From a virus: 21,547 bases of DNA. Every line of letters begins with the position of its first letter. Position 1 is the stretch's first letter. The stretch is taken from the IMG/VR virus record IMGVR_UViG_3300029319_000472, positions 3,466 to 25,012 of that record. One strand, written 5' to 3'. Shown in pieces: positions 9,663 through 18,861 of this stretch. Under the pieces are notes generated by a model. The model was not told where the DNA came from. It did no database searches and saw only the letters and a list, made by a program, of their open reading frames with translations. Position numbers and translations under genes: made by a program.

Positions 9663-10499
9663 TTATGCCTCCCTACATTTCTGGATTCTTACACCATCAC
9701 CATCAATAAGTACTGCACCCATTGACATATATGATGTTGTTAGGTGTGCTACCTTTTCAGGTATGTAGTTTACTTCTGTTCTCACATCAGAACCTACACC
9801 TAATCCTAGAGATGATTTATGGAAAGCAAGTGTGAATCTATCGTTTGATCCATCTTTGTGTAAGCCACTAAATGCCATCCACATGAAAGTAATCCATCTT
9901 TTAGCAGTTAATGTGCCGCCAAATGGTAAGTCTGCTTCACCAACATATTCAGCTCTTGAGAACTGATCTATGTCTAGAAGGTCTGACCATTGTTTTCCAC
10001 CAACAATCCAATACCTTTGTCCATCATCTGGAACATCATTTTCTTGGAAGATCTCAAACACATTCTGTGCTTTGTCTAAGTTCATACCAGTTGTTGATCC
10101 AGCTGAGTTATGTGCTAATGCAGTTGCGTTAGCGTCAAATGTATCAGTGATGATAGAATCGGTTTTTCTACCAAGAGCATATGCTGCATTTTGTGCAACA
10201 ATGTTTCTCTCATCAATGTTTACTTTTAGTTCGTCTAAACGATCCACATAATCAGCAGCGTAGAAGTCAGATAGTGTTGCAGTCACATTAGAGTGTACAG
10301 AGTTCATAGCGACAACCTCAGCGTGTCTTGCTTTAGTTGAAGCAGAACCTTTTGCTACTTTTTGAAACTGAACAGTACTTCCTTTTACATTACTGACATT
10401 ACGGACCATGTTCTTGAGCTTACTGCCCATTCTTTGATAAGCCATATGCACTTCTGCTTCGAACTGCTTTATAAAGGCTTGATCTATAGTCGCTGTCAT
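9663..10499 (-). CDS. Major capsid protein
   Basis: A 278-residue protein opening MTATIDQAFIKQFEAEVHMAY followed by QRMGSKLKNMVR, a signature of one capsid family found in many marine and proteobacterial podoviruses. Further family-like segments are NIDERNIVAQNAAYALGRK in the middle and VAHLTTSYMSMGAVLIDGDGV near the end, the last typical of an HK97-type A-domain. It builds the icosahedral shell. It lies between scaffold and tail genes, has a good AAAGGA ribosome-binding site seven bases before the ATG, and has its own 107-base leader upstream. Base composition is less AT-rich than the tail and ejection genes, as usual for a highly expressed gene. Confidence 0.92.
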   Translation of the reverse strand: MTATIDQAFIKQFEAEVHMAYQRMGSKLKNMVRNVSNVKGSTVQFQKVAKGSASTKARHAEVVAMNSVHSNVTATLSDFYAADYVDRLDELKVNIDERNIVAQNAAYALGRKTDSIITDTFDANATALAHNSAGSTTGMNLDKAQNVFEIFQENDVPDDGQRYWIVGGKQWSDLLDIDQFSRAEYVGEADLPFGGTLTAKRWITFMWMAFSGLHKDGSNDRFTLAFHKSSLGLGVGSDVRTEVNYIPEKVAHLTTSYMSMGAVLIDGDGVRIQKCREA

Positions 10500-10606: not shown

Positions 10607-10867
10607 TTATATTTTTGTCATTTTTACAAGACCAGAAGCAATAAAAACATTGACATCTCCAAAAGTATATGAGCCATCAGATTCTTCTATATATGATGCA
10701 AATGTCTTAACATAGCTTTTATCTTTAGAATATAGATATGCTTCTGTAGTAATAACAGCTGGTTTTACCGAATCCATGTCATTCTTTGACATCCATTCAC
10801 TATGACCAGTAGGATCTTCCCATTTAAATATGTACTTTTTAAAGGGAAAATCTTTCTTTTTAGCCAT
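10607..10867 (-). CDS. Small conserved phage protein of unknown function
   Basis: An 86-residue protein beginning MAKKKDFPFKKYIFKWEDPTG with conserved-looking parts HSEWMSKNDMDSVKPA, VKTFASYIEESDGSYTFGD and NVFIASGLVKM. The pattern (K-W-x-D, a central Y-L-Y-S-K-D, then F-G-D-x-x-V and a hydrophobic strand) is that of a small all-beta protein often found among the structural genes of marine phages. Its function is not known to me. It overlaps the scaffold gene by 8 bases and is separated from the capsid gene by a 107-base leader. A virion or assembly role is suggested only by location. Confidence 0.6.
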   Translation of the reverse strand: MAKKKDFPFKKYIFKWEDPTGHSEWMSKNDMDSVKPAVITTEAYLYSKDKSYVKTFASYIEESDGSYTFGDVNVFIASGLVKMTKI

Positions 10868-11603
10868 ACTTTTTTTCGTATAGCTTAGTTACTTTGTTAT
10901 AATATGCTTCATCTCTCTTTGCTGGATCGTAATATCTAGGATCATTCATCATAGATCTAAGATCTGTTTCATCAAGTTCAGCATCAACTACTGTGTTTGA
11001 ATTAGGTAATGGTTGTGTTTTTGTCAAAGCCATAATCTCTTCTATTGCTTTTATTCCTTCAGCTGTACTAGCTAATTTTGCAAGACTATTATAACTATCT
11101 TGACTTAAATATTTTTTTGACCACAAATCAGCAGCTTCTACACGACTATTAGCATTATCACCTAACTTTTGCATTTCTTGTTGTGTATCAGGTAAACCAG
11201 CTATCTCATTGTTTACAAAAGCATTTACACCTCTGTTAAACATTTCTTGTGATAAATTATTTTCTTTACAAATAGCTGACCATTCTTTTAATAGTTCCTG
11301 ATCTTTATTAACTTCTATATTAATATGCTCTGGCACTTCAGGTATAACTATCTTGTATTCTTCAGGTACAACACTTTTTCTTTCTTGTTCTATATCTGTT
11401 CTTATCTGCTTAGATAGTTCATCTGTTCTCATACCTAGCTTTTTTTCTAAAGCATTGTAAGAAGCTCCAAGTTCTTCAACTTTTATTTCGTTTCTATCTG
11501 TATCCCAAAACTTTTCTGATATATATTCAGGTCTACTAGGTGCTTCTTGTGGTGCTTCTGTTGCTGTAACTGCTTCTGTAGTTTGTGTATTTTCTTCTTC
11601 CAT
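10860..11603 (-). CDS. Capsid assembly scaffolding protein
   Basis: A 247-residue acidic, mostly helical protein. It has an N-terminal low-complexity Glu/Thr/Ala stretch (MEEENTQTTEAVTATEAPQ), then PEYISEKFWD and ASYNALEKKLG. This start is seen repeatedly in podoviral scaffolds and in capsid assembly proteins of the gp9 type. The C-terminal part ends in DPRYYDPAKRDEAYYNKV and a basic KLYEKKYG tail. A basic helical tail is the usual coat-binding element of scaffolds. It sits between the portal block and the capsid gene, as expected. The start overlaps the preceding stop (TAATG). It would be an internal, transient component of the procapsid, expelled before packaging. Confidence 0.85.
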   Translation of the reverse strand: MEEENTQTTEAVTATEAPQEAPSRPEYISEKFWDTDRNEIKVEELGASYNALEKKLGMRTDELSKQIRTDIEQERKSVVPEEYKIVIPEVPEHINIEVNKDQELLKEWSAICKENNLSQEMFNRGVNAFVNNEIAGLPDTQQEMQKLGDNANSRVEAADLWSKKYLSQDSYNSLAKLASTAEGIKAIEEIMALTKTQPLPNSNTVVDAELDETDLRSMMNDPRYYDPAKRDEAYYNKVTKLYEKKYG

Positions 11604-11878
11604 TAGTTCTCCCTATGTGTTTCTATTCTTTTTTTAATAATAAAATATAAATATCTCATTCCTTCTAAATGTCGTAACTGGTCATTTGAAATATCTCTAC
11701 CAGCTACAGCATCTACTGTAATAGATTTTAAGTAATTTAAAACCTTTTTTCCTAACTCTGTTTTAAAAAGTGCAGCAATATCAGCGTTTAATTCTATCTC
11801 TGCTTTTTTAGATCTTTGAAATCCATCTATGCTAAGATGGAAACCTTCAGGTTTGTTGCGTATTTGCTCCCAAGCCAA
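11603..11878 (-). CDS. Bbp19-like small phage protein
   Basis: A 91-residue protein with the central segment IAALFKTELGKKVLNYLKS and, near the end, HLEGMRYLYFIIKKRIE. An F-x-T-x-x-G-x-x-V-L-x-x-L motif followed by an E-G-x-R helix is what I associate with the Bbp19 family, named after a small protein in the structural region of Bordetella phage BPP-1. Its molecular role is not established. The gene starts inside the portal gene (32-base overlap) and ends in a TAATG overlap with the scaffold gene, so it is expressed with head assembly genes. The family call rests on short motifs and is moderately sure. Confidence 0.6.
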   Translation of the reverse strand: MAWEQIRNKPEGFHLSIDGFQRSKKAEIELNADIAALFKTELGKKVLNYLKSITVDAVAGRDISNDQLRHLEGMRYLYFIIKKRIETHREN

Positions 11879-13430
11879 TTTGTCCTCCTTGTGCTTGTTG
11901 TAATTGTTGTAATTGTTGTACTACTTGTTGTTGTTCACCAGCATCACGAATAAGTTTTTCTGGTAAATTCATTTTTTCTGCTAAATATCTAGCTACTTCT
12001 TCTTGTTTTACAATTAAATTTAATACTTCTGGTCCAAATGTTTGACCAAGTGTTGCATTAAATCTATTTAAATCTGAAATATCTTGTTCGTGCTGCGCCC
12101 TTGATAGTGGCGATTCAGGAATAATTTTTATTTCTTTATTATCTATACTTGGTATTTCAATCCTTCCTTGTTTTTTCAAAATATATATAACTCTTCTAAT
12201 CAAAGGTGTAATAAATTCTGATTGTAATCTACCAAATGAAGAACCAATCTGTCTTGACAAGTCTGCCATTCTTTCTGCAACTTCTGTAGCAGACATTGGT
12301 GTTCCTTTTGTTGGACCAAGTGTTTCCATATATAATGCTTTTCTAATATTGTTTCTCATATCTTCTAAAACAATTTGTGCTACATCAAATCTACCAGCTC
12401 CATTAATAGGTTGTAAACCTCTTGATCCTGGAGCAACTGGTATAATAGTTCCAGGCATAAGTGCAATATTATCTGTATTAATTACTCCATCATCTTCTAA
12501 CTGATAGATACCAGATATGTTCATCTGTGCATTTTCTAGTATTAGTTCTACTGTAAGATTTGTAGTTTTAATTGCTGCCATAGCATTAAATACTGGACCT
12601 CTTCCATAAACTTCACCACTTGCTTTGTTCCATCTAAATGTAATAAATGGATTTGAACCAACACCTTCATATTTATCTTGTAAAATAATCTCTTCAAATT
12701 CTTTTATACAAACAACATAATCATAAACTTCTTTATTTGGATCTGCATAGTTCCTCATTGTGCCTTCTATAACATTTATTTTTTCATCAGGATTGTTTGC
12801 TAATCTTTCTAACAAAACATCATTCATATTAGCATTAGGATATAAAACTTTTAAATCACCAAATCTAATTTGTCTTTTTCTATAAACACAATCTATTTTA
12901 TTGTTTGGTCCACTATTTAATGTTATGTGAGGTAATGGTATTGCATTGAATACTATTGGATCTGTAGATGTACCTTCATTAACAAGTAAACATCCTGTAC
13001 CTATAGCACAATCCATAAATGCTTCATGCACTTCCTGATTAAAATTAGAATTATGTAATACTTCGAAAACATAATCTGTTATTTCATCTAGTTGTTGATC
13101 TATAACTGGCTTTATTTCATTAGGCATTTCAGATCCAGATTTTAAATTAATCCACCTACCGAATGTTGGTGTAATACCAGCTTGTAATCTACTAGCAAAC
13201 TCTTGTATACCTACTACTGCTGTTTCATCAAATATTCTATCTGTTCTTTTTTGACCTGGTGATTCTTCATAAAATGATTCTCTTCCAGGCATAGTATATT
13301 CATATGCTTCTTCAAATTTAGGTGTCCATACAGACTTTAATCCTTCAGCCAAACTATATTTTTTTAAAAACATCTTTCCTGTCATTTCAGTAGATGTATT
13401 AACAGAGCCTCTATAATTATTATATTCCAT
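11847..13430 (-). CDS. Portal (head-tail connector) protein
   Basis: A 527-residue protein of the T7 gp8-like connector family. Characteristic parts are the N-terminal YEYTMPGRESFYEE and DETAVVGIQEFASRLQAG segments, then TPTFGRWINL, and the central NPFITFRWNKASGEVYGRGP. The ETLGPTKGTPMSATEVAERM stretch follows, an element strongly conserved in these portals. The dodecameric ring sits at one capsid vertex, through which DNA is packed and ejected. The C-terminus is Gln-rich, from a 9-base DNA repeat. Length agrees with the family. The start overlaps the upstream stop (TAATG). Confidence 0.93.
   Translation of the reverse strand: MEYNNYRGSVNTSTEMTGKMFLKKYSLAEGLKSVWTPKFEEAYEYTMPGRESFYEESPGQKRTDRIFDETAVVGIQEFASRLQAGITPTFGRWINLKSGSEMPNEIKPVIDQQLDEITDYVFEVLHNSNFNQEVHEAFMDCAIGTGCLLVNEGTSTDPIVFNAIPLPHITLNSGPNNKIDCVYRKRQIRFGDLKVLYPNANMNDVLLERLANNPDEKINVIEGTMRNYADPNKEVYDYVVCIKEFEEIILQDKYEGVGSNPFITFRWNKASGEVYGRGPVFNAMAAIKTTNLTVELILENAQMNISGIYQLEDDGVINTDNIALMPGTIIPVAPGSRGLQPINGAGRFDVAQIVLEDMRNNIRKALYMETLGPTKGTPMSATEVAERMADLSRQIGSSFGRLQSEFITPLIRRVIYILKKQGRIEIPSIDNKEIKIIPESPLSRAQHEQDISDLNRFNATLGQTFGPEVLNLIVKQEEVARYLAEKMNLPEKLIRDAGEQQQVVQQLQQLQQAQGGQIGLGANTQQT
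11895..11921 (-). repeat. Three tandem 9-base units in the portal C-terminus
   Basis: The plus strand shows TTGTTGTAA twice and then TTGTTGTAC in direct succession. Read on the minus strand it gives a Val/Leu-Gln-Gln repeat within the portal C-terminal tail. It is a short coding microrepeat and probably arose by slippage. Confidence 0.8.
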
Positions 13431-14415: not shown

Positions 14416-14786
14416 TTAGTGCTTCCATTCTTTACTAAGTATTTATATAACTGAAAAGGCGTAATAATCAATCTATTTATTCCAATCAATCTCATAATTA
14501 TAGTTACACAGCTATGTTCTCTCAACCATGCTGCTTGAAACAATCTCCATTTATGTTTGAATCTTTTAGTTCTTAATATTACTCCATTATTACTAAGAAT
14601 ATGGTATATAACTCTATTTAACTCTTCTCCCTGTAGTAAACTAACATCTAATCTTTTATGAATATGCTCTATCATTACCCAAGTGTTTTTATTAGGATCA
14701 AAATAAAAAGCACCACAATGAGCCATGCCTTTGCGTCTAAATACATGATACCACTCTTCTTGGGGTGGATCGTAAAAGAATATCAT
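14304..14786 (-). CDS. Putative permuted papain-like fold protein next to terminase
   Basis: About 160 residues from an ATG whose complement is at 14784-14786, which overlaps the terminase stop as ATGA. The frame could extend eight residues further, but the ATGA coupling favours this start. Seen in sequence: an RKGMAHCGAFYF segment with His at about residue 23, a WVMIEH strand with Glu at about 40, and much later EHSCVTIIMRLIGI with Cys at about 93, then ITPFQLYKYL. This order His-Glu-Cys, with a Cys starting a helix and a T-P-x-x-L end, matches circularly permuted NlpC/P60 or YiiX-type papain-like folds. This is family knowledge applied to a pattern. The C-terminal 40 residues are a Lys/Glu-rich tail that is dual-coded with the next gene. 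It could be an enzyme, perhaps a peptidoglycan amidase, or a derived non-catalytic packaging accessory. Confidence 0.6.
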   Translation of the reverse strand: MIFFYDPPQEEWYHVFRRKGMAHCGAFYFDPNKNTWVMIEHIHKRLDVSLLQGEELNRVIYHILSNNGVILRTKRFKHKWRLFQAAWLREHSCVTIIMRLIGINRLIITPFQLYKYLVKNGSTKWEFLEHQNTDLIQKQKEEEKSKSVKKKELKKNKKKH

Positions 14787-16306
14787 CCATTCTTTCTGAA
14801 AATATCCCATTTACCTCGCTTATTTATTGTATTTCTATTGAATATATCCCAAGACTTGTAAACATTTGTAACAGTTGGTTTTTGTGATCCTACTGTCAAA
14901 GATCTACCTTCTCCAGCACCTAGCATTAAATATTGTAGTGCATCATGGACATGAGAGTATTTATTCTTATTTGGTCTATCTTCATACCTTTCTCCTGATG
15001 TTTGTATTCTTCTGTAGTGATATCCACCAAGAAAGCCTTTTCTTAGTTGTTTACAGGATGGCGATAGTAAGAAACCAGACTTACCATCAACCATCCTATT
15101 TAATGCAGCTTCTACTGATTCTATTCGTAGAGATACATCATTTGATGGAGCTGGAAAGGCTTGGATACCTTGTTGTCTAAGTATCTGAAAAGGAGTAGTT
15201 TCATCTGTTTGCGCCCTAAAATCTCCAGCTGGATCACCAAATATTTTTAAATCTTTATCTGCACAATGCTTTATTATTTCATGTTTAAGCATTTCACTAA
15301 ACTTTACTGTACCAATATCAAAACAAACTAACTCATGGTTTATTATCCATCTGCCATCAGGTAGCTTTTGACCAAACACAGCTGATGGTGTAAGTCCAAA
15401 GTCTAAACCTATGTATACTGTAGTGTTTGCAAATTGTATATCTTCACTAGCAATATGTGTATCTTCTCTAAAAGAACCATATACTAACTTACCATCTTCG
15501 ATAGTTCCTAATTTATTCAGTACATAGACATCTATCCATGACTTTGATTTACCCCTAATAATATTGGGATAATAATTTTCTGTAACATTTTTAATATTTT
15601 CAGCTGTCGTATTAATGTCGTACCCCTTGATCTTATCATCTTCTTTTAGTTCTATCATTCCAGGTGGTTGTACAAAAAACTTCCAGTTGTCAGGTTTAAC
15701 TAACATCAATGATTCTTCTTGATTCATATGATCTGGTACTGGTACTTCCCCTGACATAATAGACCACCAATGATCTTCATCTGGTGCGTTGGTATCTGCT
15801 ATAACACCATACCATGTGGGTCCACCATCTTTGACTGCTGGATATCTACCTACACGCATAGTACAAGCATCTACAATAGTTTTAGGAATCTCTCTAGCTT
15901 CATTAATCCATACTCCTGTTAGTTCTAATGATAGTAGTTTCTTAACATCTTCTGGTCTATCCAATGCTAAAAATATAACTTCTAACTCTATATCATTAAT
16001 GTGTATATTATGGGTAAACGGAACTGAGTAAGTAAAATTACCAAATATATTTTCTGGAAACCAATCTAACCATGTTTTCATGGTAGTAGTTTTTAACTGA
16101 GGGTTTGTATTTCTGATTACTGCCCATCTTGATTTCTTTTTACCATCAGGTGATGCTTGTTGTTTGGCAGCTCTTCTAAATATTTCTATACAACAAGATA
16201 CTGATTTACCTGATCCTACTGGACCTCGTACACCTCTAAAGAAGCTATCATCCTTCATAAAAGTTTTGATAACTTCTCCAGGTGCTTTATAATTTAGTCC
16301 ACTCAC
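14783..16306 (-). CDS. terL: Terminase large subunit
   Basis: A 507-residue packaging motor protein. The N-terminal ATPase has a Walker A motif GPVGSGKS at residues 28-35 and a Walker B-type strand TGVWINEARE at 130-139, with the catalytic Glu right after the Asn. The C-terminal RNase H-like nuclease shows YIGLDFG (Asp 302), FGDPAG (Asp 358) and HDALQYL (Asp 455), the three usual metal-binding acidic positions. The enzyme pumps DNA into the procapsid at the portal and cuts the concatemer. The start codon is GTG (complement at 16304-16306) and overlaps the upstream stop as GTGA. No ATG lies near enough in frame to replace it. It lies downstream of the small-gene cassette and upstream of portal genes in a single leftward unit. 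Confidence 0.95.
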   Translation of the reverse strand: MSGLNYKAPGEVIKTFMKDDSFFRGVRGPVGSGKSVSCCIEIFRRAAKQQASPDGKKKSRWAVIRNTNPQLKTTTMKTWLDWFPENIFGNFTYSVPFTHNIHINDIELEVIFLALDRPEDVKKLLSLELTGVWINEAREIPKTIVDACTMRVGRYPAVKDGGPTWYGVIADTNAPDEDHWWSIMSGEVPVPDHMNQEESLMLVKPDNWKFFVQPPGMIELKEDDKIKGYDINTTAENIKNVTENYYPNIIRGKSKSWIDVYVLNKLGTIEDGKLVYGSFREDTHIASEDIQFANTTVYIGLDFGLTPSAVFGQKLPDGRWIINHELVCFDIGTVKFSEMLKHEIIKHCADKDLKIFGDPAGDFRAQTDETTPFQILRQQGIQAFPAPSNDVSLRIESVEAALNRMVDGKSGFLLSPSCKQLRKGFLGGYHYRRIQTSGERYEDRPNKNKYSHVHDALQYLMLGAGEGRSLTVGSQKPTVTNVYKSWDIFNRNTINKRGKWDIFRKNG

Positions 16307-16500
16307 ACATTATTGGAATCAATACCAGCTTTGATTAACTTATAAATAGTTTCAGGTAGTAGTGATTCTATAAACAGATCTGCTTCTTTATCTGTAATAA
16401 GATCTTTTGGATAGTGTGCAAAATGCACTTTCTTTACTATCTTTCTTAATCTCATACGATCTTGAAAAGATATTTCGTCTTGTGCGTATTGCTGTGTCAT
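16303..16500 (-). CDS. Small protein upstream of terL, unknown
   Basis: A 65-residue protein starting MTQQYAQDEISFQDRMRLRK and continuing with IVKKVHFAHYPKDLITDKEA and a helix ending LIKAGIDSNNV. The first half is basic and amphipathic and the second acidic. It looks like a small helical protein of a type found before terL in pelagiphage-like genomes. No function is known to me. The start overlaps the stop of the membrane peptide gene (ATGA), and its stop overlaps the GTG of terL (GTGA). Tight coupling to terL suggests a packaging-related task, but this is positional inference only. Confidence 0.65.
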   Translation of the reverse strand: MTQQYAQDEISFQDRMRLRKIVKKVHFAHYPKDLITDKEADLFIESLLPETIYKLIKAGIDSNNV

Positions 16501-16604
16501 ACAGCTTTAGCAATAGCTATTATAGCAACAACTAAAATAGCAATAACAATACCTTTTCCTTTTTTATTTAAACGATCCCAACGATCAAGTATTGGTTCAA
16601 ACAT
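16497..16604 (-). CDS. 35-residue single-span membrane peptide
   Basis: This short gene has an excellent AAGGAGC ribosome-binding site before the ATG (complement 16602-16604). The product starts MFEPILDRWDRLNKKGKG and ends in a continuous Ile/Val/Ala helix of about 17 residues with a final Lys-Ala-Val. It is thus a small protein with a charged N-terminal helix and one membrane span. Its stop overlaps the ATG of the next gene (ATGA). In T7, holin gene 17.5 and the spanin genes flank the terminase genes, so a holin- or pinholin-like role is possible. The span is short, and a purely structural role or a membrane anchor would fit too. Confidence 0.7.
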   Translation of the reverse strand: MFEPILDRWDRLNKKGKGIVIAILVVAIIAIAKAV

Positions 16605-16605
16605 A

Positions 16606-16734
16606 CTAGCTCCTTTTCTTTTTCTTTTTATTTTTCTTAGCTGCCATGATGATGTCGCCTCTGGTTATTTTCTTTTTATCACCATACATAGCAGCAAGAC
16701 CTTTCTGTTTTTTAGAGTATTTACTAAAAGGCAT
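16606..16734 (-). CDS. 42-residue lysine-rich protein
   Basis: The product starts MPFSKYSKKQKGLAAMYGDK, continues with KKITRGDIIMAA and ends in a Lys-run tail. It has 16 Lys or Arg residues against 2 Asp. The K-Y-S-K-K-Q-K-x-L-A-A plus K-K-I-T-x-x-D layout is one I recognise as a frequent short ORF in marine phage genomes, with no known function. The stop is one base from the next ATG, and the start overlaps the previous stop (TAATG). Such a basic protein could bind nucleic acid, but nothing in the sequence proves it. Confidence 0.7.
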   Translation of the reverse strand: MPFSKYSKKQKGLAAMYGDKKKITRGDIIMAAKKNKKKKKRS

Positions 16735-16844
16735 TAGTAACTCTTCATCTTAGGCTTCTTACCAGCTTTCTTCATAGCCATAGCTGTAGCTGCCTGTTTC
16801 TTTGCTTTCTTAGTCTTAGGCTTCATTTTCATTCCGTGTTTCAT
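16734..16844 (-). CDS. 36-residue Lys/Met/Ala-rich protein
   Basis: Starting MKHGMKMKPKTKKAKKQAAT, this 36-residue product has 14 Lys and no acidic residue, so it is among the most basic proteins possible for its size. An AGGAG ribosome-binding site precedes the ATG (complement 16842-16844). The start overlaps the stop of the 82-residue gene (ATGA), and its own stop overlaps the next start (TAATG). The composition resembles histone-tail-like or DNA-condensing peptides. I know of no assigned function. Confidence 0.65.
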   Translation of the reverse strand: MKHGMKMKPKTKKAKKQAATAMAMKKAGKKPKMKSY

Positions 16845-17089
16845 GTTACTCTCCTATATGCTCTTGTTTTTGCTGCAATAGATTTAGGTTGCTTTACAAA
16901 CTGCTTCCCTTTTCTACTACCCTTTCGTTTAGCTCTAGTTGTTCTAGCATACTCTTCAGGAGTAAGTGCCTTTATTGCTGCCTCTGGTAAATATCTTTCA
17001 CCAGTCTTAGCAGATGGCTTTCCTGACTTTGTACGCCACTTCTGTTTAGTCCACGCCTTTAAACTGCGTTGTGATTTAGCTAGAGCCAT
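16841..17089 (-). CDS. Basic protein, DUF5872-like
   Basis: An 82-residue protein with 25 Lys or Arg and only 4 Glu. Motifs are RSLKAWTKQKWRTKSGKPS near the start, then TGERYLPEAAIKALTPEEYA and a basic GKQFVKQPKSIAAKT end. This is the pattern I associate with the DUF5872 family, found in marine phages and also in large algal viruses. W-R-T-K-S-G-K and R-Y-L-P-x-A-A-I-x-A-L are the most conserved parts. The function is unknown. It overlaps the previous gene by 14 bases and the next by ATGA, in the middle of the small-gene cassette. The DUF number is from memory and should be confirmed. Confidence 0.75.
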   Translation of the reverse strand: MALAKSQRSLKAWTKQKWRTKSGKPSAKTGERYLPEAAIKALTPEEYARTTRAKRKGSRKGKQFVKQPKSIAAKTRAYRRVT

Positions 17090-17231
17090 GTTTCTTTTGT
17101 ATATTAAATTTTGCAGTTAGACTAGCACCTTTATGTGCTTTGAATGGACCACTATGCTTCATTAGCTTGTATCCACCATTCTTTGTTTTCATCCAATGGA
17201 AACCAGCTGGAGCTTTAACAGACTTCATCAT
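17076..17231 (-). CDS. 51-residue basic protein
   Basis: The start is an ATGATG pair (complement 17226-17231) preceded by an AGGAGGTGG ribosome-binding site, and the first ATG overlaps the previous stop. The product reads MMKSVKAPAGFHWMKTKNGG, then YKLMKHSGPFKAHKGAS and an alkaline tail. The K-A-P-x-G-x-H-W-M-K start and H-K-G-A-S are repeated in other marine phages in my recollection. It is strongly basic, has a few aromatic residues and no acidic ones, and is probably a small nucleic-acid-binding beta protein, though this is unproven. Confidence 0.7.
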   Translation of the reverse strand: MMKSVKAPAGFHWMKTKNGGYKLMKHSGPFKAHKGASLTAKFNIQKKHGSS

Positions 17232-17395
17232 TTATAACCACCTCCTGCTTTCTTATAAGCTAGTGCTAACATTTGCGCCTTCCTTGCACTCCACTGTCCA
17301 GGTTTCCCACCTTTTCCACCAGCTTTAATTCTATTAAATATTCTTTTCCTCATGCCTGGCTTTGTATAGTTACCAGCTTTATTAACTGTACTCAC
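17228..17395 (-). CDS. 55-residue basic protein with GTG start
   Basis: The start codon is GTG (complement 17393-17395), which overlaps the stop of the 85-residue gene as GTGA. Translated from there the product is MSTVNKAGNYTKPGMRKRIF, then IKAGGKGGKPGQWSARKAQM and a final AGGGYK. The K-A-G-N-Y-T-K-P-x-M-R-K and G-Q-W-S-A-R-K-A-Q-M elements are known to me from many marine phage genomes as a small conserved protein of unknown function. An internal ATG at residue 15 would remove the conserved N-terminus, so GTG is the better start. Confidence 0.75.
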   Translation of the reverse strand: MSTVNKAGNYTKPGMRKRIFNRIKAGGKGGKPGQWSARKAQMLALAYKKAGGGYK

Positions 17396-17649
17396 CACTT
17401 CACCTTATTCGCCCAAAACGCAGCTGACATCTTGCCTTTAGCTATATTCTTTGCGTGTCTTGCCTTAAAAGACTTTGCTCTCTTTGTCATAGTTCTATCT
17501 CCTGTTTTACCCTGTTGCCCAAACCGAATCGTCTTAATCTTATCACCAGATTTAGCAACTACTATGTGTGATTTGGTTTTATGACCTGGAGTTCTCTTTG
17601 GTTTATTATAACCACTTACTCCAGCTCTCTTTAATAAACTCTGGCTCAT
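17392..17649 (-). CDS. Basic protein, DUF6321-like
   Basis: An 85-residue protein starting MSQSLLKRAGVSGYNKPKRT, with PGHKTKSHIVVAKSGDKIKT, IRFGQQGKTGDRT and ending FKARHAKNIAKGKMSAAFW. The G-Y-N-K-P-K-R-T-P, H-x-V-V-A-K and K-S-F-K-A-R-H motifs are very distinctive and are those I link to the DUF6321 family, found in marine phages and large eukaryotic viruses. No function is established. Net charge is strongly positive. It overlaps its neighbours by ATGA upstream and GTGA downstream. The family number is from memory. Confidence 0.8.
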   Translation of the reverse strand: MSQSLLKRAGVSGYNKPKRTPGHKTKSHIVVAKSGDKIKTIRFGQQGKTGDRTMTKRAKSFKARHAKNIAKGKMSAAFWANKVKW

Positions 17650-17870
17650 TTAAATTTTCGATTTTGTGGTTTATTTACTTTCTTTAAAGCATTTATTGCT
17701 TTTTTTTGATCTTTCTTAAATAATGAAAATGTAAAAATAGCCTTTCCAGTTTTATTATTAAATAAAGAAAAAGATACTAAATCTTTATTTTTACCTCTGC
17801 CAGGAGGTCCATCATTTAATAATTTTTTTATATTTTTCTTATACTGAATTTCAGATTCTGTTGCCATCAT
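17646..17870 (-). CDS. 74-residue basic protein, unknown
   Basis: It starts with an ATGATG pair. The AAAGGA ribosome-binding site is 3 bases before the first ATG and 6 before the second, so the second (giving 73 residues) may be used. The product has a basic helix (IQYKKNIKKLLN), a GPPGRGKNKD turn, two short beta segments LVSFSLFNN and AIFTFSLFKK, and a basic tail. The sequence is extremely AT-rich (11 G+C of 60 bases in 17701-17760), unlike the neighbouring small-terminase gene at 43-48 percent. It is unrecognised, and is the first gene of the cassette after the candidate promoter. Confidence 0.6.
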   Translation of the reverse strand: MMATESEIQYKKNIKKLLNDGPPGRGKNKDLVSFSLFNNKTGKAIFTFSLFKKDQKKAINALKKVNKPQNRKFK

Positions 17871-17986: not shown

Positions 17987-18373
17987 CTAATCTAGATCTA
18001 TCTTGATTGCAATGTTTCCACCCACATTGTGTTGTACTCTTTCAGGAGCTTTCATGCCTATCCTATCTAGGAGATCCTTACTAGCTTCCAGTCTTACATA
18101 CTCACTCTTCCCATTTTGTATTAAGTGTAGGAGAGTTGAGGATGCGTGGACTGATCCTAGTCCTAACTTGTTGGACACTTCCTGTTGTAGGTACGCTTGT
18201 ACCTTTGGTAATCGTAGTGTCCTACTAGCTACTACTCTACCACTTTCTCCCCTTGAATAACCAGCCTTCTGACTTGCTTCGGTTATGGTACATCCTGTGG
18301 CTACGAGGGTATCAACTAACAACCTCTGTTTGTATGTCAAACCATCTTTCTTTCCTAATTGTGTTCTTGCCAT
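17987..18373 (-). CDS. terS: Terminase small subunit
   Basis: About 128 residues from MARTQLGKKDGLTYKQRLLV. The N-terminal helix-turn-helix includes VDTLVATGCTITEASQKAGY and RGESGRVVASRTLRLPKVQA. A helical oligomerisation part follows, with ASKDLLDRIGMKAPERV and an end of short beta strands (GGNIAIKIDLD). This is the usual architecture of small terminases that recognise the packaging site and feed DNA to terL. The frame remains open to an ATG at 18401-18403, adding ten residues. I prefer the inner ATG because the conserved protein begins there and the extension would code through a palindrome. No Shine-Dalgarno is visible at either start. Its G+C (27 of 60 in 18121-18180, 29 of 60 in 18241-18300) is well above its neighbours. 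Confidence 0.8.
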   Translation of the reverse strand: MARTQLGKKDGLTYKQRLLVDTLVATGCTITEASQKAGYSRGESGRVVASRTLRLPKVQAYLQQEVSNKLGLGSVHASSTLLHLIQNGKSEYVRLEASKDLLDRIGMKAPERVQHNVGGNIAIKIDLD

Positions 18374-18399
18374 TACGATAGATGTAAACATGATCGTAA
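18373..18399. promoter_or_regulatory. Nested dyad over the terS start: operator candidate
   Basis: A perfect 7-bp inverted repeat, TTACGAT at 18373-18379 and ATCGTAA at 18393-18399, encloses an inner palindrome ATGT-AA-ACAT. The two halves differ by one base in spacing. ATGTAAAC within it recurs at 18417-18424, 35 bp further on. A TTGACA hexamer on the minus strand (18403-18408) sits just upstream in the sense of terS, but no good -10 lies at the normal distance. It fits a repressor or activator site controlling the leftward late block. Confidence 0.5.
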
Positions 18400-18423
18400 C
18401 CATGTCAAGTTAAAAAATGTAAA

Positions 18424-18439
18424 CGATCCTCACGGATCG
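18424..18439. repeat. Perfect 6-bp hairpin
   Basis: CGATCC and GGATCG flank a TCAC tetraloop. It lies in the control region immediately beyond the terS operator candidate. With a 4-base loop it could form in RNA from either strand; no T-run follows, so it is not a typical terminator. Confidence 0.6.
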
Positions 18440-18460
18440 GCAGCTTTCGATCTTTCCATA

Positions 18461-18478
18461 TCATCTCTTGCGAGATGA
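18461..18478. repeat. Perfect 7-bp hairpin
   Basis: TCATCTC and GAGATGA flank the tetraloop TTGC. It is 21 bp beyond the previous hairpin in the non-coding control region. No terminator-like T-run follows on either strand. Confidence 0.6.
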
Positions 18479-18540
18479 ATGTGCTTACGCATATGATCTT
18501 CGCTGCTATCTCTCTCTCTTGATTCTCAATTATATCACAA

Positions 18541-18625
18541 AAGTACAAGTACTTCGTTTCGCTGAGCTTCGCTCCTAATCGCTCAACTACGCCCTCTACG
18601 AGGGTAACTCGCTACGCTCCTAATA
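18541..18625. repeat. Decamer-phased GCT/GCC motif array with hairpins
   Basis: From 18551 the sequence falls into ten-base units whose junctions read YC|GCT or AC|GCC: at 18561, 18571, 18581, 18591 and 18611, with one exception at 18601. CCTAAT occurs at 18574, 18619 and 18642. Short hairpins overlap the array: AAGTAC/GTACTT at 18541-18554, GAGC/GCTC near 18564-18574, CCCTC/GAGGG at 18592-18604. G+C is 30 of 60 in 18541-18600. Repeated motifs one helical turn apart suggest a protein-binding array (operator or origin-like). I see no sigma70 promoter for the rightward genes here. Confidence 0.45.
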
Positions 18626-18675
18626 CTGACTAAAGTTTGTGACCTAATCGAGGAATCAAGAAAGGAGATTATATT

Positions 18676-18861
18676 ATGAAAACTCTTGATAAAACTTTTA
18701 CATTACTAGATCTGATGCTTTCAATGAGGAAGAAAAAAGCAGATCAACTGCATAAAGCCTATGATTCAGATGTATCGTGGGAATATTATGAAGGATGGCA
18801 TGACGCCATAGAGGAACTGCAAAAGCAGATAAAAGATATGGAAGGAGATCAAAATGACTGA
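18676..18861 (+). CDS. First gene of rightward cassette, small helical protein
   Basis: A 61-residue charged protein starting MKTLDKTFTLLDLMLSMRKK with an acidic second half (SWEYYEGWHDAIEELQKQIK). It has a strong AAAGGAGA ribosome-binding site seven bases before the ATG. It looks like one or two amphipathic helices and I recognise no family. It opens the rightward transcription unit after the control region and overlaps the next gene by 8 bases. Small acidic proteins at this position in phages often target host enzymes, but there is no direct evidence for that here. Confidence 0.7.
   Translation: MKTLDKTFTLLDLMLSMRKKKADQLHKAYDSDVSWEYYEGWHDAIEELQKQIKDMEGDQND

What the first reader, a model, noticed from the sequence alone, without database searches (positions are those of the whole stretch)
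16606..17870. Cassette of seven tiny, mostly highly basic proteins between terS and terL
Seven genes (74, 85, 55, 51, 82, 36 and 42 residues) are joined by ATGA, GTGA, TAATG or short overlaps, all read in the direction of terL. Two resemble DUF5872 and DUF6321, which I recall from marine phages and large algal viruses. The 36-residue product has 14 Lys and no acidic residue, and the 82-residue product has 25 basic against 4 acidic residues. A conserved set of histone-tail-like peptides translated with the packaging motor suggests DNA condensation, packaging or host nucleic-acid control. The sequences and overlaps are seen; the function is inference.
Basis: partly seen in the sequence, partly recalled or inferred. 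Interest (0 to 1): 0.6.

Follow-up and report, generated by a model that had tools for sequence, protein, structure and literature searches.

The report
Slot-swapped tiny basic phage proteins
Between the two DNA-packaging genes of this marine SAR11-type phage lies a conserved row of tiny, strongly positive proteins whose members are exchanged like cassettes between related phages and recur in unrelated marine phages, some with distant relatives in algal giant viruses, which suggests that they handle viral DNA late in infection.

Summary
On the minus strand, seven overlapping genes (74, 85, 55/56, 51, 82, 36, 42 aa; net charge +11 to +21) lie between terS and terL, followed by a 35-aa membrane-type peptide and a neutral 65-aa protein. 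They are the only seven of 34 genes with charge density above 0.12 (0 of 20,000 shuffles). In 49 complete terS-terL intervals there are 26 gene orders on one skeleton, with other tiny basic families (including a relative of fusellovirus virion protein VP2 and true DUF6321 proteins) substituted at fixed slots. The 55/56-aa and 82-aa genes are halves of one DUF5872-like protein: fused in four loci, and in that order in 186 of 186. The 85-aa protein goes with DUF5754/Tlr6F, not DUF6321, and is homologous to the C-terminal domain of ICP1's capsid protease. Unrelated isolates carry the same families in late operons, often beside lysis genes rather than terminase. Best mechanism: late nucleic-acid-binding proteins that enter or load the virion. 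Families and island are shown; virion presence and DNA binding are inferred. A terminase-specific role is not supported outside this lineage.

The parts
17987..18403 (-). terS, terminase small subunit, first gene of the late operon
   Evidence: Pfam Terminase_2 3e-08, above cut-off; phrog_51 2.2e-11
17646..17870 (-). g1, 74 aa, net +14; slot immediately 5' of g2, taken by a VP2-like protein in four sister intervals
   Evidence: pN/pS 0.37; no Pfam or PHROG match
17392..17649 (-). g2, 85 aa, net +21; phrog_7595, DUF5754/Tlr6F-like; homologous to the C-terminal domain of ICP1 capsid protease gp125
   Evidence: phrog_7595 1e-33; 7 of 20 relatives match DUF5754, best 2e-7; AF2 pLDDT 86.6; BFVD matches
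17228..17398 (-). g3, 56 aa (55 if the second GTG at 17395 is used), net +14; N-terminal half of a DUF5872-like protein
   Evidence: phrog_17747 3e-32; fused to g5 in four loci; DUF5872 match of fused forms; pN/pS 0.21
17076..17231 (-). g4, 51 aa, net +11; slot between g3 and g5
   Evidence: homologues in HTVC103P between g3 and g5 and in L103; slot taken by fB, fC or nothing elsewhere
16841..17089 (-). g5, 82 aa, net +21; phrog_14910, C-terminal half of a DUF5872-like protein
   Evidence: phrog_14910 1.3e-37; downstream of g3 in 186 of 186 loci; pN/pS 0.18
16734..16844 (-). g6, 36 aa, 14 Lys, no acidic residue; slot after g5
   Evidence: 11 homologous ORFs among fetched loci; too few distinct copies for a selection test
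16606..16734 (-). g7, 42 aa, net +14; family with N-terminal P-[YF]-x-K-Y-S-x-K-Q-K
   Evidence: 22 homologous ORFs among fetched loci, in several phage types
16497..16604 (-). 35-aa peptide with one hydrophobic, membrane-type segment; conserved end of the cassette
   Evidence: 77 loci; pN/pS 0.25
16303..16500 (-). 65-aa neutral protein overlapping terL
   Evidence: 104 loci; pN/pS 0.13
14783..16306 (-). terL, terminase large subunit, 507 aa
   Evidence: 65% identical to Pelagibacter phage EXVC031P Hodr, 40-41% to BcepC6B TerL and MEP301 terminase

Best explanation
The cassette is an island of late-expressed, small cationic nucleic-acid-binding proteins. They are translated with the packaging and head genes, associate with the genome during or after packaging (most likely inside the head, in tens of copies), and modestly neutralise or organise the DNA; they may be ejected with it. 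g3 and g5 act together as one DUF5872-like unit; g2 is a stand-alone head-type (DUF5754/Tlr6F-like) domain; g1, g4, g6 and g7 occupy exchangeable slots whose occupants share charge but not sequence. Shown: genes, late-operon position, charge, co-occurrence, order, slot exchange, g3-g5 fusion, homology of g2 to a capsid-protease domain, and a VP2-family relative in the g1 slot of sister phages. Inferred: DNA binding, virion entry, copy number and benefit.
For: Seven contiguous basic genes (0/20,000 shuffles). Same-strand run terS, cassette, terL, head-tail adaptor, protease, major head protein, tail proteins, internal virion protein. Slot exchange among basic families: 26 orders in 49 intervals. 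Small genes within 1.2 kb of island anchors are basic far more often than those 2.5-8 kb away: 45% vs 2% around g2, 42% vs 8% around g5, 37% vs 7% around DUF6321, 72% vs 1% around the 65-aa gene. A slot occupant matches Pfam's fusellovirus VP2 family above its cut-off, and 9 of 16 relatives match; [quoted passage not shown]). g2's domain is the C-terminus of ICP1 capsid protease (Peptidase_S78_2 at 37-160, phrog_7595 at 184-261), with structural matches to an XkdF protein. Tlr6F is in nearly all polinton-like viruses and many giant viruses (PMC4642659).
Against: No virion proteomics or binding data were found for any member. VP2 is dispensable in SSV1 (PMC9608457). The VP2-like protein is not in the window, and the match rests on a short basic sequence (28.9 bits against a cut-off of 27). 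Complete charge neutralisation is not plausible: one set carries +109 against about 68,000 phosphates for a 34-kb genome (Hodr is 34.2 kb), so some 620 sets of about 47 kDa each would outweigh the DNA. Several families have strongly conserved motifs (WSARKAQ...GGGYK; RHxxN...SAAxWAxKxxW), more than charge alone needs. Neither model resembles any solved structure, including DNA-binding folds.
Confidence: 0.45

Rival explanations
1. Injected internal proteins: packaged in the head and ejected with DNA to act in the new host (anti-restriction, nucleoid or polymerase control), as for T4 internal proteins IPI-III (own knowledge). Charge serves packing and transit; slot exchange reflects an arms race.
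For: Slot exchange between close relatives is the pattern expected of anti-defence genes; basic small proteins in a head operon; g2 domain fused to a capsid protease.
Against: g2/Tlr6F-like and DUF5872-like relatives in algal giant viruses (PMC12220804, PMC4642659) argue for a job not specific to bacteria; g2, g3 and g5 are under strong purifying selection and are not hypervariable.
Confidence: 0.2
2. Assembly or packaging accessory factors that never enter the finished virion: terminase, scaffold or capsid-maturation helpers acting on the prohead or concatemer.
For: Position between terS and terL and overlapping genes; g3-g5 directly 5' of terL in MEP401; g2 domain fused to a head-maturation protease.
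Against: In HTVC034P, Lederberg, CRP-5, CRP-13 and S-CRES1 the families lie away from terL.
Confidence: 0.17
3. Lysis peptides: cationic peptides that disturb the outer membrane at lysis, like the phage cationic peptides called disruptins (own knowledge; not looked up).
For: Island beside endolysin, peptidase or amidase genes in HTVC033P, HTVC034P, CRP-13 and S-CRES1; a 35-aa single-segment membrane-type peptide closes the cassette.
Against: Very hydrophilic sequences: for the 36- and 42-mers the most amphipathic stretch has moment about 0.3 with negative mean hydrophobicity, against 0.51 and 0.66 for magainin and cecropin; g2-like and DUF5872-like families occur in viruses of algae.
Confidence: 0.08
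4. RNA- or ribosome-directed late host-control proteins.
For: Small, Lys/Arg/Gly-rich proteins resemble ribosomal-protein composition; weak profile similarity of g2 to chloroplast L24 (E 0.46), not significant.
Against: Late-operon location; no significant match to any ribosomal or RNA-binding family.
Confidence: 0.07

Closest known systems
DUF5754 / Tlr6F (PF19058)
   Same: 7 of 20 g2 relatives match, best 2e-7; BFVD structural matches include a Tunisvirus protein (E 0.011). Described as conserved in polinton-like viruses, giant viruses and some phages, function unknown (PMC4642659, PMC12220804).
   Different: Window g2 itself does not match the Pfam model; it is much closer to phrog_7595 of marine phages and sits in a terS-terL cassette.
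DUF5872 (PF19197)
   Same: Fused g3-g5 relatives match across the junction (23.1 bits, residues 4-76).
   Different: Below the curated cut-off (27.5); in the window the two halves are separate genes with g4 between them.
DUF6321 (PF19846)
   Same: True members lie in the equivalent position in L235, L237 and L240 (1e-25 to 1e-27) and, by a profile built here, in Hodr, HTVC033P, HTVC034P, Lederberg and MEP401.
   Different: No window product matches; only two g2 relatives match weakly (best 0.003).
Fusellovirus SSV1 VP2 family (PF25632), virion DNA-binding protein
   Same: A 66-aa slot occupant in L205 passes the Pfam cut-off and 9 of 16 relatives match; it takes the slot of window g1, just 5' of g2.
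   Different: Not encoded in the window; the similarity is in sister phages only.
Capsid protease gp125 of Vibrio phage ICP1 (Peptidase_S78_2 / XkdF type)
   Same: Its C-terminal part (184-261) is a phrog_7595/g2 domain.
   Different: There the domain is fused to the protease; here g2 is free-standing, and the window's candidate protease is a separate gene (10860-11603).
T4 internal proteins IPI-III (own knowledge)
   Same: Small basic late proteins in a variable locus.
   Different: No sequence similarity was tested; T4 proteins carry a scaffold-targeting signal cut by the prohead protease, not examined here.

Membership tests
DUF5872 | Match to PF19197 above the curated cut-off | tested here: not met
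   Window g3 and g5: no match; fused relative 23.1 bits vs 27.5
DUF5872 | g3-like and g5-like halves in one polypeptide | tested here: inconclusive
   Split in the window; fused in L001 (Hodr), L121, L127, L147
DUF5754/Tlr6F | Match to PF19058 | tested here: inconclusive
   Window g2 no match; 7 of 20 relatives match, best 2e-7; structural match to a Tunisvirus protein
DUF6321 | Match to PF19846 | tested here: not met
   No window product matches; met by proteins in L235, L237, L240
phrog_7595 / phrog_17747 / phrog_14910 | Near full-length profile match | tested here: met
   g2 1e-33, g3 3e-32, g5 1.3e-37
Fusellovirus VP2 family | Match to PF25632 above cut-off | tested here: not met
   No window product; met by the slot-equivalent protein of L205 (28.9 vs 27)
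Virion DNA-condensing proteins | Strong net positive charge | tested here: met
   +11 to +21 per protein
Virion DNA-condensing proteins | Encoded with late (head, packaging, tail) genes | tested here: met
   expression itself not measured
Virion DNA-condensing proteins | Presence in the particle and binding to genome DNA | not testable with these tools
   Needs proteomics and binding assays
T4-type internal proteins | Scaffold-targeting signal processed by the prohead protease; ejection with DNA | not tested
   Signal not searched for; ejection not testable here
Cationic lysis peptides (disruptins) | Amphipathic, membrane-active helix | tested here: inconclusive
   36- and 42-mers: low moment, negative hydrophobicity; activity not testable

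The most novel reading that the evidence does not exclude
A mobile, slot-organised kit of small virion DNA-associated proteins, exchanged between unrelated tailed phages of abundant marine bacteria and sharing members with giant algal viruses, polinton-like viruses and an archaeal virus, forms a general viral genome-dressing system not previously recognised as one system; it would give the first function for Tlr6F/DUF5754, DUF5872 and DUF6321.
Probability: 0.28. Interest if true: 0.85.

Novelty: new variant of a known kind. Interest (0 to 1): 0.6.

Why it matters
Tlr6F/DUF5754 is conserved in nearly all polinton-like viruses and many giant viruses with no known function (PMC4642659). Finding it as one piece of an ordered island in cultivable phages, beside VP2-, DUF5872- and DUF6321-type proteins, and fused to a capsid protease elsewhere, turns several orphan viral families into one testable question about what dresses or loads viral DNA. 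It also concerns phages of SAR11, SAR116, Roseobacter and OM43, very abundant marine bacteria.

Tried and rejected
DUF6321 for a window product: rejected. PF19190 tried from memory as DUF5872: wrong accession (it is BACON_2), ignored. Phage tail tube initiator (PF23980) for g2: 21.6 bits, below cut-off 27 and partial; treated as a shared half-domain, not membership. PDB fold searches of both models: no match below E 1.6. Sequence search of the PDB: nothing significant. A g7-family protein against isolate phages by tblastn: no match, query only 39 aa. NCBIfam: nothing above cut-off. RNA structure in the terS-g1 gap: z -0.14, none. Promoter and terminator scans: no excess over shuffles. Literature on virion proteomics of carriers and on Hodr in the held library: nothing useful. 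Spurious-ORF artefact: rejected for g1, g2, g3, g5 by purifying selection and for all by homologues.

Full report
WHAT IS THERE. The window is 21.5 kb of a 25.0-kb viral record. Its late genes run on the minus strand: terS, the cassette, terL, unassigned genes, head-tail adaptor (11847-13430), protease-like (10860-11603), major head protein (9663-10499), tail proteins, and an internal virion protein at the far end. The nearest isolate is Pelagibacter phage EXVC031P Hodr (terL 65% identical). Between terS and terL are nine genes: seven highly basic ones (74, 85, 55/56, 51, 82, 36, 42 aa), a 35-aa peptide with one hydrophobic segment and a neutral 65-aa protein that overlaps terL. The seven are the only window genes above 0.12 net charge per residue and they are contiguous (0 of 20,000 shuffles). 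pN/pS is 0.13-0.37 for the genes with enough divergent copies; g4, g6 and g7 could not be tested well.

WHAT THE PROTEINS ARE. g2 is phrog_7595, g3 phrog_17747, g5 phrog_14910, all of unknown function. Scanning 20 diverse g2 relatives one by one gives DUF5754 in 7 (best 2e-7) and DUF6321 in 2 (best 0.003). DUF5754 is Tlr6F (PMC12220804), reported in nearly all polinton-like viruses, many giant viruses and some phages, without known function (PMC4642659). g3 and g5 are halves of one protein: they are one ORF in Hodr (132 aa), L121, L127 and L147, and the fused form matches DUF5872 across the junction, below the curated cut-off. In every locus where both were found as substantial hits, g3 lies upstream of g5 (186 of 186). 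In sets chosen by other genes they come together or not at all, with one exception (g2-chosen 11 both, 54 neither; VP2-chosen 10 and 44; terL-chosen 47 and 6; DUF6321-chosen 26 and 28, one g3 alone). Chrysochromulina parva virus BQ1 is annotated with both DUF5754 and DUF5872 proteins (PMC12085832).

A SLOT-ORGANISED ISLAND. In 49 complete terS-terL intervals, nearly all chosen by terL, there are 26 gene orders on one skeleton. Slot 5' of g2: g1 in 5, a VP2-like protein in 4, others unassigned or none. Between g3 and g5: nothing in 30, a 56-aa family (fB) in 7, g4 in 6, a 50-aa family (fC) in 1. Between g5 and the membrane-type peptide: fF in 13, fA plus fB in 11, fA in 10, g6 plus g7 in 4, g6 plus fA in 2, DUF6321-containing sets in 3. 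Occupants share charge, not sequence (fA, fB, fC, fF are labels for 36-, 56-, 50- and 38-aa basic families). The positional control: small genes within 1.2 kb of the anchor are basic in 45% (g2 loci) against 2% at 2.5-8 kb; 37% vs 7% (DUF6321), 42% vs 8% (g5), 24% vs 10% (VP2), 72% vs 1% (65-aa gene). These genes were called with a simple tiling script, and the loci are the best-scoring 80 of capped searches, so percentages are not estimates for all viruses.

OTHER LINEAGES. The same families recur in isolates with different gene orders. HTVC033P has a run g3, 42 aa, 96 aa, g5, 46 aa, 43 aa, DUF6321, all strongly basic, beside an amidase gene. MEP401 (OM43 phage) has DUF6321, g3, g5, then terL. 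HTVC034P and Lederberg have DUF6321, g3 and g5 at the end of the late operon after a peptidase. CRP-13 has endolysin, g2, then g3-g5, then terS. CRP-5 has g2 and two more basic peptides at the end of the late operon. S-CRES1 has a fused g3-g5 and g2 near a gene annotated as lysozyme. So the common context is the late operon; the place between terS and terL belongs to this lineage.

CLUES TO FUNCTION. (1) g2's domain forms the C-terminal part of ICP1 capsid protease gp125: Peptidase_S78_2 at 37-160, phrog_7595 at 184-261, between portal and scaffold genes; structural neighbours in the viral library include an XkdF protein, ICP1 ORF125 and a Tunisvirus protein. (2) The 66-aa protein in the g1 slot of L205 matches Pfam's fusellovirus VP2 family above its cut-off; 9 of 16 relatives match. 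[quoted passage not shown]). (3) DUF6321 also appears as a C-terminal piece of larger phage protein families, the same habit as g2. (4) AlphaFold gives confident small folds (g2 pLDDT 86.6; fused g3-g5 84.8 with pTM 0.53) without any solved counterpart. Together these favour late, head-associated nucleic-acid-binding proteins. They do not show DNA binding or virion presence.

A LIMIT ON THE MECHANISM (arithmetic, inference). One copy of each of the seven proteins carries +109. A 34-kb genome has about 68,000 phosphates, so full neutralisation would take more than 600 sets of about 47 kDa, more mass than the DNA. At 60 copies of each they would cover about a tenth. Complete protamine-style neutralisation is therefore unlikely; local organisation, loading or ejection with DNA is more plausible.

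RIVALS. Injected host-control proteins like T4 internal proteins, assembly helpers that stay out of the virion, cationic lysis peptides, and RNA- or ribosome-directed proteins are set out with their tests. The lysis idea is weakened by low amphipathicity and by g2-like and DUF5872-like relatives in viruses of algae; the terminase-helper idea by the other lineages.

VERDICT. The individual families were known as orphans; I found no description of the island in the held literature, but the library lacks most subscription journals and my searches were few.

Noticed in passing
window 16497-16604 (-): 35-aa peptide with a charged N-terminus and one hydrophobic segment, conserved in 77 loci just before the 65-aa gene; could be a holin-like or other membrane peptide.
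   Followed up: partly
window 16303-16500 (-): Neutral 65-aa protein overlapping terL, found in 104 loci and under strong purifying selection (pN/pS 0.13); more tightly tied to terL than any basic gene, no family match.
   Followed up: partly
L170:393-638: g2 and g3 joined in frame by a deletion that removes the C-terminal half of g2 and the first residues of g3; a real deletion or an assembly error.
   Followed up: no
L049:647-1252: A g5-like domain at the N-terminus of a 202-aa protein with an unassigned C-terminal part.
   Followed up: no
L242:2085-4276 (HTVC008M): A g2-domain protein (133 aa) directly follows a cytidylyltransferase-like protein that ends in DUF5824.
   Followed up: no
L246:6410-6700, L247:4940-5176, L249:3181-3369, L250:6243-6431: Cys-containing or membrane-type small proteins are interspersed in the basic islands of several isolates (for example 62 aa MWLAVVMACQTLEASSC... 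in CRP-5, with a similar one in CRP-13).
   Followed up: no
window 18403-18676: Divergent junction between the late minus-strand operon and a plus-strand set of small genes; an inverted repeat with T tail at 18424-18439 on the minus strand, not above chance for the region.
   Followed up: partly
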